Assembly: GCF_900187135.1 (NCBI RefSeq)
Contig: NZ_LT906443.1
Span: forward strand, 1,116,001 to 1,180,000
Reading direction: 5' to 3'
DNA: 64,000 bases
Origin: Corynebacterium ulcerans
GTDB lineage: Bacteria; Actinomycetota; Actinomycetes; Mycobacteriales; Mycobacteriaceae
The notes beneath the pieces were generated by a model. The model ran no database searches. It saw only the letters and a list, made by a program, of their open reading frames with translations, and was not told the origin of the DNA. Below are positions 51,476 to 60,354 of this stretch, piece after piece; position 1 is the stretch's first letter; each line of letters opens with the position of its first letter. A program made the translations under genes and the position numbers.

Positions 51476-54400
51476 CTAGTATCGTCTTATTCTTCCGATT
51501 CCTAGGCCAACACCGACTATTGCCACACCCAGAAGAGCGACCATGCCAACTCCTATGCCACCGGTCTTAGGCAAAGTACCACTTTCTTTTACATCAGCGA
51601 TTGGGATAGTGATAAGTCCTTTATCAACTTTGATGTTGCTCGTTAGTACAGGGAAAGCATTTACCTGCCTGGGGAACTTAACCACAGGATTACCAGCTGT
51701 ATCCTTTTCAATCCTCATAAGCATGGGTTCCGGTAGAAGGCTATACCCCGACGGAGACCTAGTCTCAACCAAGAAATAGTACTTATCGGTCTTCACGTCG
51801 GCAGTACCTGAGGTGCCATCAGCATTGACCACAATCTCTGTTCCGGTTTGTGCAGGCACGTAATTGTCTACGCTGTCACCGACCGGATCTCGAAGTTCAA
51901 ATTTAGCGTCGAGCGTCTTGGTGTGATTATCCGCATCGACTTTTTGAATCTGAATCTTCAAAGGAGTATCCGTACATTCCTCAGCGGTCGTCGTATTGTT
52001 CCCGGACATTGGATCCGTCTCATTACCGATGATGATCGCAGTATTCCGAGCACAACCATCAACCATCGTCTCTGGCTGCTTAGCAGATATTTCTACGCTC
52101 ACGGAAGAGCTGGGAGGAACAGGGCCAAAAATAATTTGGATTGAATTACCACTAGTATGAACACTCGTCTGGGTAGCAGTGGTGCTCTCCATCTTAATGT
52201 CTGAATATCCCTGCTCAAACGTATCGTTAAGAACAAAGCCAGAGCTTCCGTTAAGCAGGCTCTTGTTGGCGACTTCAATCCTCCAATAAATCCGACCGTT
52301 CTCCTCTTTTATAAAGGTCTTAGTAGCTTCCAGATCCACCTCAGCGGGGACAAGACCGTTACTTGTACCGTCTGAGTTATAAGAGCGTGGTGCGGTGTCA
52401 TCTATGGATACCAACTCAAAAGTAGGGTTTGCGGAGTCTGGGTTGGTCACTTTCAATTGCACAACGTCACTGGTTGCACCAGCACTGGCCGTACCAAATC
52501 CTAGATTTCCATTACCGTAGCTCCACGCTTTACCCCATTGGTGTCCCGTTGGGATTGCCTGACCGGCAAGAGTACGCAGATCCGTTATATCCCAAGTGGT
52601 AAGGGAACCATCGTTCATGTTCATACGCTCAAGCACGATGCGATTGTTCGCAGCCCAACCGTTTTTAATGCCCCACGCATAGTTACCTTTAGTCCCAGGA
52701 AGAGCAGTCCAGTCTTCGGCTCGGGAGCAGTAGTTTGCTTCATCATTGCCGCACCTAGCAGAAGCTGAACCAGTAGGAGTTGCAGTACGGTTGCTCAGAT
52801 CGATTTTGTAGAAGTGTCCACTTCCAGACAAAGAAGAGTTGGTCACCCAATAGTTTCCGTTTAGGTCAACAAAGCCCGAGTTGACTCCACCCCACAGGTC
52901 GTTCGGCCACGGCTGATTGTACGAACCGCCGATACCATAGTTTTTCTGTGTAGCAGCATCAGTAATTCGTCCCAAGTTATACACTTTTCCGGTAACCGGA
53001 TCGATTTGCAGTAAGTGCCCAGCGGGGAAACAGGGGTCTTCTAAAGGCACATACTGATAGCTTCTACCATCACTACTTTTAACAGTATGTCTGCCAACTC
53101 GTCCTTGAGATACCGCATACAGCCAATTGTCTGCGGGGTTATAGGCAAGGGCATTGACGACCCACCCCGTTTGATCACCTATTTTCTGGAATTGGGTGCC
53201 TGCCTGTGTCTGCAGATAAAGCTGAGACATATTTCTAGCCTGGCTATTGGGCGTACTTGCAGTGACATACACGGAAGTACCACGAGCTTTTTCTGCTGCG
53301 GTCAAGGTACGAGCTGGTTGGCGGGATGAAACTCTCCGTTCGTCTCCGCTCCACGGCATGGGCATGCCGGTGTCATCCACAGGACGGTCCGTAGGGCTAC
53401 AGACAGTGGGCATTGGAGACGCGGTTCCTTCTCCCAACAATTGAATATTACAAGGGGTGTAAGCGCCGGACCTAAGCTTAGATGGAATATACAGAGCAAA
53501 AGGCTTACTTCTACCTACAGGTATCCCTGGATTAAACGTAGCACTCAAATATCTGCCATTAATCGTTATTGTAAAATCTGTAACGTTGGCGTACTTTTTC
53601 CCACCAGCCACCGCATAAATTTTGGAATCTGCTAAATCAGCTGGTATTTCGAGACCACTCGGGAGATACACGGACATCACATATACGCTAGCGACTTCCG
53701 TCACAGTTGTAGAAAATAAGAATTTACTTCCATCCGCACGACAGTTTTTAATGGGTGACGTCTTCAAATTGACGTAATTGTTTGACGGCGGTGCAGGAAG
53801 TTCTCCCCACAGCGTCATTGTCCCGGTTGTCCAGGTCGTACCAGTCCACGGACCAGTTGCCTCAAATGTGGTTTCCTCAGGGTAATCTTGAGGCTCCTTA
53901 AACGTGAAATACACGTCATCGCCATCCACACGAAGTTCATATTTACCAGGATCGACAACTGTATTCCCGACCTTAAGCGACCATCCTGCAGAACTTATAA
54001 AACCAGCTACCTCAGTATGGATATTTAGCTCTTTTACCTTTCCTGGACCTTGTTTCTGGGTACTGATAGTAAGGATCCCATTCTGCAGATTCGCAGCTGA
54101 ATTACCGGATCCGAGTCGTTCTAAATCCGGAGTGCCAGCAACCGTGGGAACTGCAGCTCTTAATGCTTGTGGGCTAGGAGTTCCATACACCTGCAAACCA
54201 ACTGGATTTCCTTTTTCACCAGTGGGGACGACATCGTTAAAGTTAGAACCACCGCTTATGGTCATCACGATCTTTTGCCCAGCGCTGATTTTATACGGTT
54301 GCCCAAAAGTAAGCTTCGCGTTCTCGGCGCCCGCTTGAAGGCCTTCGAATTGTTCTATCAATTTACGCGTTCCATCAGCGTCTTCTGCAAAAACTTCAAT

Positions 54401-55129
54401 TTTATTGGCTGCTTCTTTAAGAGCTTCACCAAAAGACAGGCCAACGCCTGCAATAGAAGAGTTTTGTTTAACTACCGAGGAAAATTCGGCAGTAGCCCCA
54501 CTACCAGTTTTCGCGTTTGGTGAGGAATCAACTGTAGATGGAGACACTGATTCCACAGCGGAACGAGGATCTAGTGGCTGCGGCGCAGCAGAAGTTGCTG
54601 AGGTTTCGGTTGAGGCGCCAGTTATTGTGCCGAAAACCCTCATTTTCCCCTCAGACCACTGAGCACTAACAGGTGTGTTTAGTGATACTTCGTCACCAGG
54701 AGAAGCTACAACTGGAGGAAAAGAAGCAACCCACACGCCACTTGCTAGATCCCACGTGATGCTGTTAAAAGGAACTTCGGTGTGACCAATTGTGACACCC
54801 CACGTGTCGTCAAATATAGGTGTATTCAAACCCTGCAGTGCATCATTTTCCAGACTAATGCGGTCAACGGTAGCAGCTGTATCAAGTGGAACACTGAACG
54901 TTTGCTTTTGTATTCCTGCTACAGCAGTGACTTGTTCCACAGCAATTTCTTGAGTTTGCGCGTTTGCGCGTGGCGCTGAGCCAACCGTTGCAATACTTAT
55001 TGCAAGTGCGAGAATTCCGCTAAAGGCAACAAAAAAGTTGATAAATGCCTGCGCCCGAAATGCTACGCGCACAGAAGAGCGCGCCGAGATATTTCCTGGC
55101 TGAGATTCGTTGATCATATTCATGCTCAC
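51476..55129 (-). CDS. spaF: Pilus tip-type surface protein (SpaF position)
   Basis: 1217 residues, GTG start overlapping the spaE stop (GTGA); ATG 55123 is possible. Long signal peptide with a helix near 30-50 and ANAQ cleavage. N-terminal ~600 residues beta-rich; ~625-930 looks like a propeller (GWVVNALAYNPADNWLYAVSQGR, GFVDLNGNYWVTNSS); ~940-1065 a DUF11-like domain (LEATKTFIKEENGRIYWRIEVAN); then a SpaA/Cna-B domain with E-box YYFLVETRSPSGY; LPKTGG sorting motif, helix and RIRRY tail. Last and largest gene of the cluster, where SpaF (tip adhesin) lies in C. diphtheriae. No DxSxS (vWA) motif is seen. Confidence 0.8.
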   Translation of the reverse strand: MSMNMINESQPGNISARSSVRVAFRAQAFINFFVAFSGILALAISIATVGSAPRANAQTQEIAVEQVTAVAGIQKQTFSVPLDTAATVDRISLENDALQGLNTPIFDDTWGVTIGHTEVPFNSITWDLASGVWVASFPPVVASPGDEVSLNTPVSAQWSEGKMRVFGTITGASTETSATSAAPQPLDPRSAVESVSPSTVDSSPNAKTGSGATAEFSSVVKQNSSIAGVGLSFGEALKEAANKIEVFAEDADGTRKLIEQFEGLQAGAENAKLTFGQPYKISAGQKIVMTISGGSNFNDVVPTGEKGNPVGLQVYGTPSPQALRAAVPTVAGTPDLERLGSGNSAANLQNGILTISTQKQGPGKVKELNIHTEVAGFISSAGWSLKVGNTVVDPGKYELRVDGDDVYFTFKEPQDYPEETTFEATGPWTGTTWTTGTMTLWGELPAPPSNNYVNLKTSPIKNCRADGSKFLFSTTVTEVASVYVMSVYLPSGLEIPADLADSKIYAVAGGKKYANVTDFTITINGRYLSATFNPGIPVGRSKPFALYIPSKLRSGAYTPCNIQLLGEGTASPMPTVCSPTDRPVDDTGMPMPWSGDERRVSSRQPARTLTAAEKARGTSVYVTASTPNSQARNMSQLYLQTQAGTQFQKIGDQTGWVVNALAYNPADNWLYAVSQGRVGRHTVKSSDGRSYQYVPLEDPCFPAGHLLQIDPVTGKVYNLGRITDAATQKNYGIGGSYNQPWPNDLWGGVNSGFVDLNGNYWVTNSSLSGSGHFYKIDLSNRTATPTGSASARCGNDEANYCSRAEDWTALPGTKGNYAWGIKNGWAANNRIVLERMNMNDGSLTTWDITDLRTLAGQAIPTGHQWGKAWSYGNGNLGFGTASAGATSDVVQLKVTNPDSANPTFELVSIDDTAPRSYNSDGTSNGLVPAEVDLEATKTFIKEENGRIYWRIEVANKSLLNGSSGFVLNDTFEQGYSDIKMESTTATQTSVHTSGNSIQIIFGPVPPSSSVSVEISAKQPETMVDGCARNTAIIIGNETDPMSGNNTTTAEECTDTPLKIQIQKVDADNHTKTLDAKFELRDPVGDSVDNYVPAQTGTEIVVNADGTSGTADVKTDKYYFLVETRSPSGYSLLPEPMLMRIEKDTAGNPVVKFPRQVNAFPVLTSNIKVDKGLITIPIADVKESGTLPKTGGIGVGMVALLGVAIVGVGLGIGRIRRY

Positions 55130-55944
55130 TTTTTGCTTTGTTCTCTGCGGCGGTTAACAGCTAGGAACACAAAACCTAGACTGATGAGGAAGGCTGCGCT
55201 GACAACCAGCCAAATAACAGCTGCTCCTGTCAAAGGAAGCCGCTCTACACGACGTTCAGGTGTTGAGGATGGCGGTACCGGAACCGTCGTACTGGGGGTG
55301 ACGTTAGGTTTCGGCGGTGACGGTATCTGCGTTGAAGGAGGGACCCAAGGTGGCGGTGTTGGTTCAGGCTTAGGATCATTTTTGAACTTCATTACGACTG
55401 TAAAGCTGTAATCCCATTCGCCGTTTTCGCCTACGATCGGAACAATAAGAACTTCTTCTTGAGGCTCCCGATCTCCCGGTTTAGATGATTTCGCAGTAAT
55501 AAGGTATGCACCCGGTATAAGCTCCGGAAAATTTGCTTCACCTTTAGCATTAGTCACCGCAGCATATCGCTCGAGGACATTAAGGGTTTTTGCTTGATTG
55601 ACAGTAAGCTTCGCAGCTTTAGTGTATCCCTCTGAAGTATTGATCGGATCAGTTTCAAGCAAGGTAACTGTCACTTCATATCCAGGTAGACCAGCATCTG
55701 TACCACTTGAGCTATCTGGAATTTTGATAGTGATATTAGCTTTGCGATCTAGATCGATAGTCTCGAATGGAGGCGCTGGCTTAGGAAAACCAGTGACAGC
55801 AGCCAACGCAGATGGAAACGCTATGTTGCTCGTAGACGACCCTAGCAGTCCGCCTCCGATTATCAGTCCAGCTGTCAAAGCGATGGAGATGGCGAGTATT
55901 AGGTTACGTCGAACCCCGTTATATACGATTCTTTGCTTCTGCAT
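55126..55944 (-). CDS. spaE: Minor (base/ancillary) pilin, SpaE-like
   Basis: 272 residues from the ATG overlapping the srtC stop (TGATG); GTG 55947 is one codon earlier. Signal helix (~13-45), one Cna-B/SpaA-like beta domain (~60-190, with EGYTKAAKLTVNQAKTLNVLERY), WDYSFTVVMKF resembling a pilin motif, a Pro-rich spacer (EPTPPPWVPPSTQIP) and LPLTG near 237, followed by helix and RRREQSKK. Size, Pro-rich spacer and place fit the minor pilin that joins the fibre to the wall. Confidence 0.82.
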   Translation of the reverse strand: MQKQRIVYNGVRRNLILAISIALTAGLIIGGGLLGSSTSNIAFPSALAAVTGFPKPAPPFETIDLDRKANITIKIPDSSSGTDAGLPGYEVTVTLLETDPINTSEGYTKAAKLTVNQAKTLNVLERYAAVTNAKGEANFPELIPGAYLITAKSSKPGDREPQEEVLIVPIVGENGEWDYSFTVVMKFKNDPKPEPTPPPWVPPSTQIPSPPKPNVTPSTTVPVPPSSTPERRVERLPLTGAAVIWLVVSAAFLISLGFVFLAVNRRREQSKK

Positions 55945-56903
55945 CACAGTTCAGTTTTATTCTCGGTAGATTCGGAGTCAGGGACGATCAGGGAGTTCTC
56001 ATGCCGTTTAGCGGCCCTACGTGATTGCTGTATTAACCACGCAATAAGGCAGACAAGCCCTGCAATAAATATTGCGGTGAGTACATACATCCACCATTGC
56101 CAAGAGATACCTTGTGCCTCGTCGAGCATGTTTTTCTCTTCTTCGGCTATCGGAACTTGATGTCCACGAACTAATAAACGATGTGTGTTAATCCCGTAGG
56201 GAGTACAGGTAACTAATGTGATTAAGTCTTTGCCAGCCTCAACTTTTAGATCTTCAGTCTCATTGGGAAGAACTACCTTGATCTGATCGACCTCATATTT
56301 AATTTTGTGTCCAGCGATATGTATAAAGAACGCATCGCCCTCTTTAACGCGATTTAAATTGTCAAAAAGTGTCGCTGTCGGTATTCCCGTGTGCCCTGTC
56401 AAAACCGAGTGGCTACTAGGTCCACCCACTGGAAAATCAGATCCAAAAAGATGACCAATTCCCTTTTGTAGTACGTCCTCACTCGAACCGTGATAGATAG
56501 GTAAATCCGCTTTTATGGACGGAACAATGATCCGCCCCATCGCATCCTGTCCATTCAAGATGCTTAGGTACTCTTGATACGCATAGTTATCCGGGACAAA
56601 GTGATTAACCCACGGATCGAAGATCGGACCTTGCGCGCGTTCCTCGTTATATTTGTGGGCCGCGTCCCACGCTTCTTCATGCACTATCTGTGGTGTTGAG
56701 TTATCGATTTTTGCGTACTCCACCGCTGCACGTTGTTGTTTCCAGTTGTTCCATTGCGTAGCTACCACTGGATAAACCATGACAATTAGCCCAATAATCA
56801 CTACTAATGCAGCTAGCACATGGTTATTTTTCTTCTTTACATGTTTTAGCTTCAAACGATGAACGGGTCCACGCCGTTCAGTCTTTGCTACAGAGTCTGG
56901 CAT
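55944..56903 (-). CDS. srtC: Class C (pilus-polymerising) sortase
   Basis: 319 residues. N-terminal helix (~30-52), catalytic domain with lid motif DPW (IFDPWVNHF) near 98, His in LTGHTGIPTATLF near 170, Cys in TLVTCTPYG near 230, Arg in NTHRLLVRGH, and a C-terminal helix (~262-290). The lid plus second helix mark class C, which links pilin subunits by isopeptide bonds. GGGAG lies close before the ATG. It has a close paralogue at 59467-60354 (HRLLV(R/Q)GHQVP and QWN(N)). Confidence 0.92.
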   Translation of the reverse strand: MPDSVAKTERRGPVHRLKLKHVKKKNNHVLAALVVIIGLIVMVYPVVATQWNNWKQQRAAVEYAKIDNSTPQIVHEEAWDAAHKYNEERAQGPIFDPWVNHFVPDNYAYQEYLSILNGQDAMGRIIVPSIKADLPIYHGSSEDVLQKGIGHLFGSDFPVGGPSSHSVLTGHTGIPTATLFDNLNRVKEGDAFFIHIAGHKIKYEVDQIKVVLPNETEDLKVEAGKDLITLVTCTPYGINTHRLLVRGHQVPIAEEEKNMLDEAQGISWQWWMYVLTAIFIAGLVCLIAWLIQQSRRAAKRHENSLIVPDSESTENKTEL

Positions 56904-57136: not shown

Positions 57137-57266
57137 CTAGTTTTTAGCGGAGTTACGACGTGCCAACCATGCGCCAGCACCGATGATTAAGGCACCAAGT
57201 GCTGCGAGAATGCCGATACCTGCGCCACCCGTCATCGGAAGATTCGGAGTTGTGTCTTTAAGGTTT
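57137..57266 (-). pseudogene. spaD: Out-of-frame sorting signal of the major pilin
   Basis: Continuing from the A7 tract (57291-57297) in the shifted frame, the sequence reads IENLKDTTPNLPMTGGAGIG, a hydrophobic helix AALGALIIGAGAW and LARRNSAKN, stop at 57137-57139. This is a complete LPxTG signal that the current frame does not reach. Confidence 0.88.
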
Positions 57267-58775
57267 TCAATCTTTCCATTTGTGCCGATCTTTTTTTATT
57301 AAAGATCCTTGTGCGTCAACGACTTCTTGCTTTTTAAGGTCAAATTTAATCGGCTCAGGCAAAAGCTCATAACCTTTAGGAGCTTCTGTCTCGACTAGGC
57401 AATAACTGGAGTATTTGTTAGTGACAAAAGACTCAACAGCATCGTCATCGGTCCCGTATTTTCCATCCGGTCCTGCTGAGTATTTCTCATTAGCAATATC
57501 ATTGACGTGAAGACCCGTAATCGTTACCTGACCACTACCACCAGCAGATATCCATTCTTCTTTCCCTCCGGAACGAAGTTTCTGTGCGGGAGCTTTGACA
57601 GCATCCACGCATTCTTGGTCGCCTATTGCACCGTAAAGCGCAAACTTTGCTCCAGCAAGTTTTTCGTTGGTAGCACCGTCGATTTTGTCGAAAGTGACAT
57701 CACCGAAATAAGTTTTGACTCGAGGAGTTTCGCTAGGCGTGCCCGTCTTATCTTGATCATCATTGGGATTGTTCTCAAACACTTGTGCTTGGTTTGGCAA
57801 GATACCCGTAGACGAGTCTTTGACGGTGGCAGGAATCTCCACGCTAACTTTCATAGCACTCGTAAGCTTAGCGAGTCCCTCATCTTTAAAGGTAACTGTA
57901 ACAGTCTGGCCTGCCACAGTTACTTCATAGTCAACATCTTCAGTAAAGACTTTGTCTCCAGCATCCTCAATCGAAACCTTGACGGAATCCTTTTCAGGAG
58001 CAGCTAATTTTTCATCCAACGTATCTTGTATCTTAAAAACGGTGCGTTTTTGATCTACACCAATTCCTTGTGGGACAGCACTGACAGTATACGTGACCGT
58101 ATCACCGCCATTCTTACCACTGTCTTCGACAATTTTATCGGTAACACCTTTTTTAAAGTTCTTGGGGTACGCATGAACATTGTAGTTCCACTCCACGCCG
58201 CCCTTTTCACCATCTTGACCGTTATTTTTTGTCATTGGAATAAACGCAATAAACGGAGAAGCAGGTGTATAACCTGGCTTGGGTCCTGTCTCTACGACTA
58301 GGTACGCACCTAATTCACCTTTTGCAAAGGAAAACTCAATCATCCCGTGTTCATCCGTGACGCCTTGTTTAACCTCGGTAACCTTTGTAAGGTCTGCTTG
58401 CCCGCCCGCTGTCAAGTACTGATTTGCAGGTTTTGGCTGATTCATTTTTTCAGCAGCGTTCTTAACGCCTGCATTGCTGTAAAGGTCTATATCGCGAATC
58501 TTGTAAAGGGTAAAACCAACACCTGGGAGATCTGTACCAGTGACTTGTGGATCAATTTCCCCCGTCGGCACATTTGAAGAAGATGGATCAGCCTTTTTAT
58601 GCAGGATCAACTTTCCGGTTGCTTCTTTATCAATAAGGGATGCCGGAAGAGATGCAAGCTGCTCCTCAGCCACCGCAATCGGGGCTGATTGAATGCCAAC
58701 AGCACCAGTCGTCAAAGCTAGACCGCACATTGCAGCGAAGGTCACAGAGCGCGTCGTACGCGAGAACTTATTCAC
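57267..58775 (-). CDS. spaD: Major pilin SpaD-like, frameshifted before its sorting signal
   Basis: 502 residues as read, from GTG 58775 (AAAAGGA upstream); the frame is open to 58844. Signal peptide ends near VAVAEEQ. Three beta domains; pilin motif WNYNVHAYPKN (its Lys is the cross-linking residue) near 185 and E-box YCLVETEAPKGYELLPEP near 473. Seven A at 57291-57297 put the reading frame into KKDRHKWKD-stop; with six A it would run on to LPMTGG (to 57137). As written it cannot be anchored or polymerised by sortase. Slippage, mutation or sequencing error are all possible. Confidence 0.85.
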   Translation of the reverse strand: MNKFSRTTRSVTFAAMCGLALTTGAVGIQSAPIAVAEEQLASLPASLIDKEATGKLILHKKADPSSSNVPTGEIDPQVTGTDLPGVGFTLYKIRDIDLYSNAGVKNAAEKMNQPKPANQYLTAGGQADLTKVTEVKQGVTDEHGMIEFSFAKGELGAYLVVETGPKPGYTPASPFIAFIPMTKNNGQDGEKGGVEWNYNVHAYPKNFKKGVTDKIVEDSGKNGGDTVTYTVSAVPQGIGVDQKRTVFKIQDTLDEKLAAPEKDSVKVSIEDAGDKVFTEDVDYEVTVAGQTVTVTFKDEGLAKLTSAMKVSVEIPATVKDSSTGILPNQAQVFENNPNDDQDKTGTPSETPRVKTYFGDVTFDKIDGATNEKLAGAKFALYGAIGDQECVDAVKAPAQKLRSGGKEEWISAGGSGQVTITGLHVNDIANEKYSAGPDGKYGTDDDAVESFVTNKYSSYCLVETEAPKGYELLPEPIKFDLKKQEVVDAQGSLIKKDRHKWKD

Positions 58776-59466
58776 GAATTTTTCCTTTTCAAAATACGAT
58801 TGCGAGTTTTTTACTCGCGCCGAACTGCGATTACGTTCGTGCAAGGCCTACCGTCATATCCGTCAGCGCATTACAAAAAAACGCATTATGGGACATGAAA
58901 TCCACATGCGTTAAACAGATAAATGTTAAAAGGGGAATGCGATCATTACCTCTGTATTGTCCACAAGACAGAGGATTTGATACCCACGAATCAAATCGCT
59001 GGGCTTGACTTTAACCCAGTCAACAATGAAAGCCCTATCGCGAAATTTCATAGAAAATAGGTCTCTAATATCAACTCGCCATAAATAGAAAAAATAAGTA
59101 CTAAATTATAAAAAGAATGCAGGTAGGACAAGAAATTTACATTAATAAATTGTCCCTACTCTAAGCTTTTGTTGATATAACAACTACCTTTTTCGGGGGA
59201 GTCTTGAATCTTTACAATCAGACTTCCTCGGTATGAAAAACTGCAAACCTTGACCATATTGCAAAAAATCCCCCAATTCTAAAAAATACCTCAAGTAGAT
59301 TGCACACAATTTAAATAAAAAATAAGAAAATTCAAGTTTTTAGATATTTCTTTCGCATACGGCCTTTAATTATATGTTGCTAATTTTTAGATTTTGCTCA
59401 CAGTGCCTAGATTTGTTGCCTAGATGCTGAGCCTTAGCCAGCACATGGCGAACTTGAGGTAAATGT
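58776..59466. other. Long divergent region between spaD and the second sortase
   Basis: 691 AT-rich bases with no gene. Hairpins cluster 174-260 bases upstream of spaD: CCTCTGT/ACAGAGG (58949-58974), GATTTGAT/ATCAAATC (58974-58997), TTGACT/AGTCAA (59005-59023) and GGGCTT/AAGCCC (59001-59035), the last two mutually exclusive. Further right, GTAGGACAA/TTGTCCCTAC (59123-59159). Probably the regulatory region for both pilus transcripts; no promoter stands out. Confidence 0.5.
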
Positions 59467-60354
59467 ATGGTCAAGCACGCAGATGCTAAAGAAGAACTGG
59501 CCCACAAAAAGAAAAAGCAGAGCAAAGGCAACGCTTTCGTCGCACTTTTGATCATCCTTCTTGGTCTGTGCGTTTTGCTTTATCCCGTCATATCCACGCA
59601 GTGGAATAACTATGCCCAATTGAAAGCTGCCGATGAGTACTCCAAATTGGAAAAATCAACGCCTCCAGAAGTACTAGACACTGCATGGAATGAGGCACAG
59701 GCTTATAATGCAGAACGGCTGGTGAGCGACCGCGTTCTTGATGCATGGAACGACACTACTGATGAAAATTCCCCTGCCTATCAACGCTATCGCAGTTATC
59801 TCTCCCAACTCGCTGAAACCGATGCTATGGGACGCATTATCATCCCTTCCATTAAGTCGGATTTACCTATTTACCACGGAACTTCAGAGGACTCTTTGCA
59901 GCGTGGCGTCGGCCATCTGTACGGAACCGACTTACCAGTGGGAGGCGTCGATCGGCACTCTGTGCTTTCTGCGCATACCGGACTACAGAACGCTACGTTG
60001 TGGGACAACCTGAACAAGGTCAAAGAAGGCGATGCCTTCTATATTGCCGCGGCCGGACACAAACTTAAGTATCAAGTTGATCGCATAAGTGTGGTCCTGC
60101 CTGAGGAGACAGATGCGCTCCAAAGGGTTGAAGGGCAAGACCTCATCACTTTGGTCACGTGTACACCATACGGAATCAACACACATCGTCTTCTCGTGCA
60201 AGGCCATCAAGTCCCCATGGATCCGCAGGAAGAAAAAGTGTTTGAAGAAGGCTCGGGAATGAACATGCAGTGGTGGATGTGGGCAATTCTTGCGGCTGCC
60301 GTTCTCACTATTGTTTTGCTCATCGTTTGGTGGCGCAAAAACTTTAGTAAGTAA
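59467..60354 (+). CDS. srtB: Second class C sortase of the pilus cluster
   Basis: 295 residues; GAGGT six bases before the ATG. N-terminal helix (~23-45) with YPVISTQWNNY, lid-like DAW (VLDAWND) near 94, His in LSAHTGLQNATLW near 167, Cys in TLVTCTPYG near 227, Arg in NTHRLLVQGH, and C-terminal helix (~270-290). Paralogous to srtC. In the SpaD cluster of C. diphtheriae two sortases (SrtB, SrtC) accompany the pilins; I assign srtB by position. It is transcribed away from the pilins and ends with a terminator. Confidence 0.88.
   Translation: MVKHADAKEELAHKKKKQSKGNAFVALLIILLGLCVLLYPVISTQWNNYAQLKAADEYSKLEKSTPPEVLDTAWNEAQAYNAERLVSDRVLDAWNDTTDENSPAYQRYRSYLSQLAETDAMGRIIIPSIKSDLPIYHGTSEDSLQRGVGHLYGTDLPVGGVDRHSVLSAHTGLQNATLWDNLNKVKEGDAFYIAAAGHKLKYQVDRISVVLPEETDALQRVEGQDLITLVTCTPYGINTHRLLVQGHQVPMDPQEEKVFEEGSGMNMQWWMWAILAAAVLTIVLLIVWWRKNFSK

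What the first reader, a model, noticed from the sequence alone, without database searches (positions are those of the whole stretch)
57137..58775. Major pilin frameshifted at an A7 tract, separating it from an intact LPMTGG signal
Read leftward, ATA-A7-G puts the frame into a stop at 57267, nine codons on. With one A fewer (or two more), it continues into a complete sorting signal (LPMTGG, helix, ARRN) ending at 57137. The rest of the pilin, including the pilin motif and E-box, is intact, and the signal shows no decay. That suggests either a recent mutation, on/off switching by slippage in the A tract, or a sequencing error. If real, the cell would secrete SpaD but make no SpaD fibre.
Basis: seen in the sequence. 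Interest (0 to 1): 0.8.

Follow-up and report, generated by a model that had tools for sequence, protein, structure and literature searches.

The report
Frameshifted pilus-shaft gene, likely pseudogene
In this Corynebacterium genome (C. ulcerans group) the gene for the pilus shaft protein changes frame at a run of seven A and so loses its cell-wall attachment signal; breaks in the same gene are already reported for sister strains and species, so it is most likely an ordinary, recent loss of function, with an assembly error not ruled out.

Summary
The spaD frame (58775 to 57267, minus strand) meets a stop just after A7 at 57291-57297, and a complete sorting signal lies in another frame, 57295-57137. 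Both pieces match one family, the SpaH/EbpB major pilins: profile positions 1-487 and 497-539 of 540. A public protein, P0001, holds both pieces unaltered in one chain, so this is a break, not a new architecture. srtB, srtC, spaE and spaF are open. SpaD is the only match over the family cut-off in this genome, so the strain would lack a pilus shaft. Slippage switching is not supported, though not excluded: 45 intact relative loci have no run longer than 5 before their signal (these are distant alleles), and 376 of 2000 synonymous shuffles of the gene contain a run of 7 or more. Broken spaD is already in print for C. ulcerans 4940, C. silvaticum, and some C. pseudotuberculosis and C. diphtheriae strains. 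Best reading: a strain-level pseudogene of a known kind (0.62). Assembly error (0.27) stays open because no reads are at hand.

The parts
57267..58775 (-). spaD, broken: N-terminal 502 codons of the major pilin, ending at a premature TGA
   Evidence: NF033902 positions 1-487 of 540, 334.9 bits; Pfam SpaA and GramPos_pilinD1; best solved structure 4hss_A, E 1.7e-36
57291..57297 (-). run of seven A at which the frame changes
   Evidence: one of 7 runs of seven in the window
57137..57295 (-). detached C-terminal piece with the cell-wall sorting signal (LPMTGG at 57241-57224) and TAG stop
   Evidence: NF033902 positions 497-539 of 540 and TIGR01167; 52 of 52 residues equal the end of P0001
58161..58190 (-). 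pilin motif (name recalled), intact
57363..57404 (-). E-box (name recalled), intact
55944..56903 (-). srtC, class C sortase, open, TLVTC present
   Evidence: 98% identical to a protein named for C. ulcerans
55126..55947 (-). spaE, minor pilin, open, LPLTG signal
51476..55129 (-). spaF, tip pilin, open, LPKTG signal
59467..60354 (+). srtB, class C sortase, open, TLVTC present

Best explanation
A recent single-site frameshift has turned spaD, the only shaft pilin gene found in this strain, into a pseudogene. The truncated SpaD should still pass through Sec and fold, since the pilin motif and E-box are intact. Without its sorting signal SrtB and SrtC cannot take it up, so no shaft forms and the protein is released. 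SpaE and SpaF, each with its own signal, could still be fixed to the wall singly or as small complexes. Shown: the two frames, the open neighbours, a public protein with both pieces in one chain, and no other gene over the shaft-pilin family cut-off. Inferred: secretion, absence of a fibre, the fate of SpaE and SpaF, and that the mutation is real and fixed in the isolate.
For: Both pieces lie unaltered in P0001, a public protein from a 55,864-base contig. 45 of 46 relative loci examined end in an in-frame signal. The neighbours are open. SpaD is 1 of 6 family matches in the genome and the only one over the cut-off. The assembly is not riddled with homopolymer breaks: 102 runs of 6 or more and 10 of 7 or more lie in frames that match G186 unbroken. 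Broken spaD is reported in C. ulcerans 4940, C. silvaticum, C. pseudotuberculosis P54B96 and PAT10 and C. diphtheriae 5015. A detached tail is also called as its own 32-aa protein on 5 contigs, one of this genome's length.
Against: No reads, no second isolate with the same break, no expression data. A single homopolymer indel is a common assembly error. One further one-base break was seen in the 384 kb compared, which fits real decay or residual errors equally. The origin of P0001 is not given, so it could even come from the same strain.
Confidence: 0.62

Rival explanations
1. Assembly or sequencing error at the homopolymer: the cell has a normal, wall-linked SpaD.
For: Single-base homopolymer miscounts are a known error type. 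A pld frameshift reported for C. pseudotuberculosis 31 was not seen after resequencing (PMC5406005, passage). P0001 is identical to the window over residues 36-495 and over the tail. A second one-base break lies about 158 kb away in a transporter-like gene.
Against: Few own-side breaks were found in 384 kb, and many runs of 6 or 7 lie in unbroken frames. Pilus genes of this group break often in published genomes. The detached 32-aa tail is called on 5 contigs, though these cannot be assigned to this allele.
Confidence: 0.27
2. Slippage switch: the A7 changes length at high rate and flips SpaD between a wall-linked and a released form.
For: The broken and the continuous form differ only in frame as far as the proteins show. 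The signal is undecayed. Pilus switching by repeat slippage exists in Streptococcus gallolyticus (PMC3894217, abstract).
Against: No run over 5 within 120 bases before the signal in 45 intact relative loci (distant alleles). A run of 7 is expected in 376 of 2000 synonymous shuffles. Seven is short for a contingency tract (recalled). No report on Corynebacterium pili in the listings; 0 occurrences of 'phase variation' in the adhesion review PMC6605028.
Confidence: 0.08
3. Recoding: slippage of RNA polymerase or ribosome on the A-run makes a minor share of full-length, anchored SpaD from the broken gene.
For: A-runs are known slippery sites (recalled). The sorting signal is undecayed.
Against: The run is not kept in 45 intact relative loci, unlike a programmed site. 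P0001 shows that the allele also exists in one frame. There are no functional data.
Confidence: 0.03

Closest known systems
Interrupted spaD of C. ulcerans strain 4940 (PMC6038270, passages)
   Same: spaD split into a part predicted to be secreted and a separate part with the wall anchor; other genes of the cluster present
   Different: There spaF is split too; here spaF is open. The site of the break in 4940 was not given in the passages read
C. silvaticum spaDEF pseudogenes (PMC7334274, PMC7751848, passages; G186 here)
   Same: spaD lacks the sorting signal
   Different: In C. silvaticum several genes of the cluster are broken; here only spaD
Frameshifted spaD of C. pseudotuberculosis P54B96 and PAT10 (PMC3544762, passages)
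   Same: Major pilin frameshifted, polymerisation said to be impaired
   Different: Another species and allele; site not given in the passages read
spaD pseudogene of C. diphtheriae 5015 (PMC6488682, passages)
   Same: Shaft pilin gene lost while spaE and spaF are kept; contact through SpaE/SpaF proposed
   Different: Another species; that strain also has a SpaH-type cluster
Pil1 phase variation of Streptococcus gallolyticus (PMC3894217, abstract)
   Same: Sortase-built pilus whose output changes with repeat length
   Different: Repeats lie in a leader peptide and act on transcription; no evidence of switching here

Membership tests
SpaH/EbpB-family LPXTG-anchored major pilin (NF033902) | profile match over the curated cut-off | tested here: met
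   334.9 bits against 95, N-terminal piece
SpaH/EbpB-family LPXTG-anchored major pilin (NF033902) | cell-wall sorting signal in the same frame | tested here: not met
   signal present but in another frame
SpaH/EbpB-family LPXTG-anchored major pilin (NF033902) | pilin motif and E-box | tested here: met
   found by string look-up; motif names recalled
SpaDEF pilus gene cluster | srtB, srtC, spaE and spaF beside spaD, open | tested here: met
strain-level spaD pseudogene | intact copy of the same allele elsewhere | tested here: met
   P0001 holds both pieces; its called start lies behind the signal peptide
strain-level spaD pseudogene | break confirmed in reads or further isolates | not testable with these tools
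   no reads and no same-allele DNA available
phase-variable contingency locus | repeat tract kept at the site in relatives | tested here: not met
   no run over 5 in the 120 bases before the signal in 45 intact loci; distant alleles
phase-variable contingency locus | tract longer than chance allows | tested here: not met
   376 of 2000 synonymous shuffles reach 7 or more
phase-variable contingency locus | mixed tract lengths within one clone | not testable with these tools
   needs deep reads of the isolate

The most novel reading that the evidence does not exclude
The A7 is a slippage switch that flips the strain's only shaft pilin between a wall-linked fibre and a released, unanchored form, so a population holds piliated cells and bald, SpaD-releasing cells. 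This would be a sortase-pilus switch placed in the pilin gene itself, just before the sorting signal.
Probability: 0.08. Interest if true: 0.55.

Novelty: new member of a known kind. Interest (0 to 1): 0.2.

Why it matters
It adds one clean case to the repeated loss of pilus shafts in the C. ulcerans, silvaticum and pseudotuberculosis group: only the shaft gene is hit, while both sortases and the base and tip pilins stay open, in a genome where no second shaft pilin was found over the family cut-off. If real, the isolate is a natural shaft-less strain for asking what base and tip pilins do alone. It also warns that a pilus inventory by gene presence can overstate piliation.

Tried and rejected
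Checked and dropped. (1) A C-terminus without signal shared by homologues: rejected, 45 of 46 loci carry one. (2) An assembly riddled with homopolymer errors: not seen, but one error is possible. (3) A conserved switch: no tract in the relatives examined. (4) Promoter and terminator scan around spaD: 1 promoter-like site against a shuffle mean of 4.8 and 3 terminator-like against 2.4, uninformative. (5) Naming the species by the search for related loci: SpaD gave 31 pattern matches and no confirmed relative; ClpB gave 80 loci kept from a capped list, none titled as a member of the C. diphtheriae complex. The species was inferred instead from SrtC at 98% to C. ulcerans, about 89.5% DNA identity to G186 over 330 kb, whose broken spaDEF pattern fits published C. 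silvaticum, and the LPxTG variants listed for C. ulcerans. C. ulcerans and C. ramonii were not told apart. (6) In paper searches 'spaD' also matches the assembler name SPAdes, so those counts are inflated (seen). Structure prediction was not run, as nothing hung on it. Of the 12 split pairs I looked at 7 protein sequences by eye and aligned one break; the 26 reverse pairs, in 18 frames, were not examined singly.

Full report
WHAT IS THERE. On the minus strand the frame that starts with GTG at 58775 runs 502 codons to TGA at 57269-57267. By eye it begins with a signal peptide; the pilin motif (58190-58161) and the E-box (57404-57363) are present (motif names recalled). It matches NF033902, the SpaH/EbpB-family LPXTG-anchored major pilins, at 334.9 bits (cut-off 95) over profile positions 1-487 of 540. 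Of 13 distinct sequences of solved structures that match, the best is 4hss_A, E 1.7e-36. Seven A lie at 57297-57291. In another frame, 57295 to 57137, stands an open stretch of 52 codons with LPMTGG (57241-57224), a hydrophobic stretch and an Arg-rich tail. It matches positions 497-539 of the same profile and the LPXTG anchor model.

SETTING. The neighbours are srtB (59467-60354, plus strand), srtC (56903-55944), spaE (55947-55126, LPLTG) and spaF (55129-51476, LPKTG). All are open, and both sortases have TLVTC. The window is 1116001-1180000 of a one-contig genome of 2,453,761 bases. SrtC is 98% identical to a protein named for C. ulcerans. The closest genome by a clpB stretch among 242 searched, G186, is 94% there and about 89.5% identical over 330 kb of aligned DNA. 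Its spaD and spaF frames are split and its srtC frame is cut short, which fits what is published for C. silvaticum (PMC7334274 and PMC7751848, passages). LPMTG, LPLTG and LPKTG are the signals listed for SpaD, SpaE and SpaF of C. ulcerans 809 and BR-AD22, whose SpaD proteins differ much from each other (PMC3164646, passages). I take the host to be C. ulcerans or its sister C. ramonii; this is inference.

IS IT A BREAK? Yes. The public protein P0001 (511 aa, one contig of 55,864 bases, cluster of 6 members, source not given) holds both window pieces unaltered: window residues 36-495 are its residues 2-461, and all 52 tail residues are its end. I examined the 46 relative loci handed out; alone found matches in 139 of 242 genomes, so this is the better-scoring part. 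Of the 46, 45 end in an in-frame LPxTG-type signal; the one without is G186. Of the 120 protein relatives listed (212 found), 118 have an LPxTG-like motif in the last 60 residues, P0045 has the variant LPMAG, and P0025 is a partial record. P0001's called start lies behind the signal peptide, so the 5' end of that allele is not known to be normal.

ERROR, MUTATION OR SWITCH? No reads are available. As an indirect test I compared 384 kb of this genome with the 397.5-kb contig of G186. Of 275 G186 frames with a close match, 12 gave split pairs. I looked at 7 of the 12 by eye. Two of them have a longer frame in this genome that is split in G186. One is a clear own-side break by a one-base gap, in what looks like a nucleoside transporter (recalled resemblance, no family search), about 158 kb from spaD and with no run of 5 or more near it. 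In the reverse direction 18 of 262 frames gave 26 split pairs, not examined singly; one of these is the transporter again. Runs of 6 or more number 102, and runs of 7 or more 10, inside the 243 stop-to-stop frames of this genome that match G186 in one piece over 85% or more. These frames are unbroken by construction, and a few runs lie in untranslated 5' parts, such as a C10 at 978078. The assembly is not homopolymer-ridden, but a single error at this A7 remains possible. A warning from the same group: a pld frameshift reported for C. pseudotuberculosis 31 was not seen after resequencing (PMC5406005, passage).

For switching, the site should be kept and long. In 45 intact relative loci the longest run in the 120 bases before the signal is 5. 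These alleles are distant, and no DNA of the same allele was available, so this is only moderate evidence. A run of 7 or more turns up in 376 of 2000 synonymous shuffles of this Lys-rich gene. A known sortase-pilus switch, Pil1 of Streptococcus gallolyticus, uses repeats in a leader peptide (PMC3894217, abstract). Two paper searches on switching listed 5 and 1 papers, none about Corynebacterium pili as far as titles and abstract starts show. The adhesion review PMC6605028 has no occurrence of 'phase variation'.

A search with the tail alone scored only 3 candidates and gave 2 hits. P0241 is a 77-aa detached tail of another allele. P0242 is a 32-aa piece identical to the tail's end, called on 5 contigs, the longest of 2,453,761 bases, the length of this genome. 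Detached tails thus occur more than once. The tail is shared by P0001, P0005, P0009 and P0012, so the other four contigs cannot be assigned to this allele.

CONSEQUENCE. The family search of the whole genome gave 6 matches, of which only SpaD is over the cut-off. By position the others are the SpaD tail, SpaE, the SpaF end and two genes at 1208-1215 kb. One of the 5 sortase matches lies beside the latter. They fit the spaBC cluster, which in C. ulcerans lacks a major pilin (PMC3164646). If the break is real, the strain has no pilus shaft that I could find. SpaD would be released. SpaE and SpaF keep their own signals; for a C. diphtheriae strain with a spaD pseudogene the authors propose contact through homo- or heterodimeric SpaE/SpaF (PMC6488682, passage). 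All this is inference. SpaD of C. ulcerans 809 and BR-AD22, whose listed signal is LPMTG, was itself detected in supernatants and not at the cell surface (PMC6027474, table passage), so release alone is not diagnostic.

KNOWN OR NEW. The kind is known. spaD is interrupted in C. ulcerans 4940, giving a potential secreted N-terminal part and a separate wall-anchored C-terminal part (PMC6038270, passage). It lacks the sorting signal in C. silvaticum (PMC7751848). It is frameshifted in C. pseudotuberculosis P54B96 and PAT10 (PMC3544762), and it is a pseudogene in C. diphtheriae 5015 (PMC6488682). This particular break was not seen in the passages read; none of these papers was read in full. Verdict: a real feature of the sequence, most likely an ordinary strain-level pseudogene of a known kind, possibly an assembly error, and of low general interest.

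Noticed in passing
G186:C7:209051-216354 (L127, L142): In the nearest genome searched the spaDEF cluster is broken in several genes: spaD in three pieces, spaF in three, srtC frame cut short, as published for C. silvaticum.
   Followed up: partly
G000:C1 near 1331134 (L162): A transporter-like gene (looks like a nucleoside transporter; no family search) is broken by a one-base gap against G186, with no long homopolymer near it.
   Followed up: partly
G000:C1:978078, 1064722 and 1014007: The longest homopolymers in the 384 kb read are a C10 (in the 5' part of a stop-to-stop frame, not a C10 in G186), a C9 and a T9 outside matched frames; by length better slippage candidates than the spaD A7.
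   Followed up: partly
G064:C1:452351-453775 (L123) and G080:C1:119439-120707: SpaD-like pilin genes of two other genomes are listed with one internal stop each, TAG and TAA.
   Followed up: no
P0001 against window 58775-58671: The otherwise identical public protein is called from a start behind the signal peptide; a caller's choice or a 5' difference, not known.
   Followed up: no
window 58875-58881: A second run of seven (T on the spaD strand) lies about 100 bases upstream of the spaD start, just after a weak promoter-like match.
   Followed up: no
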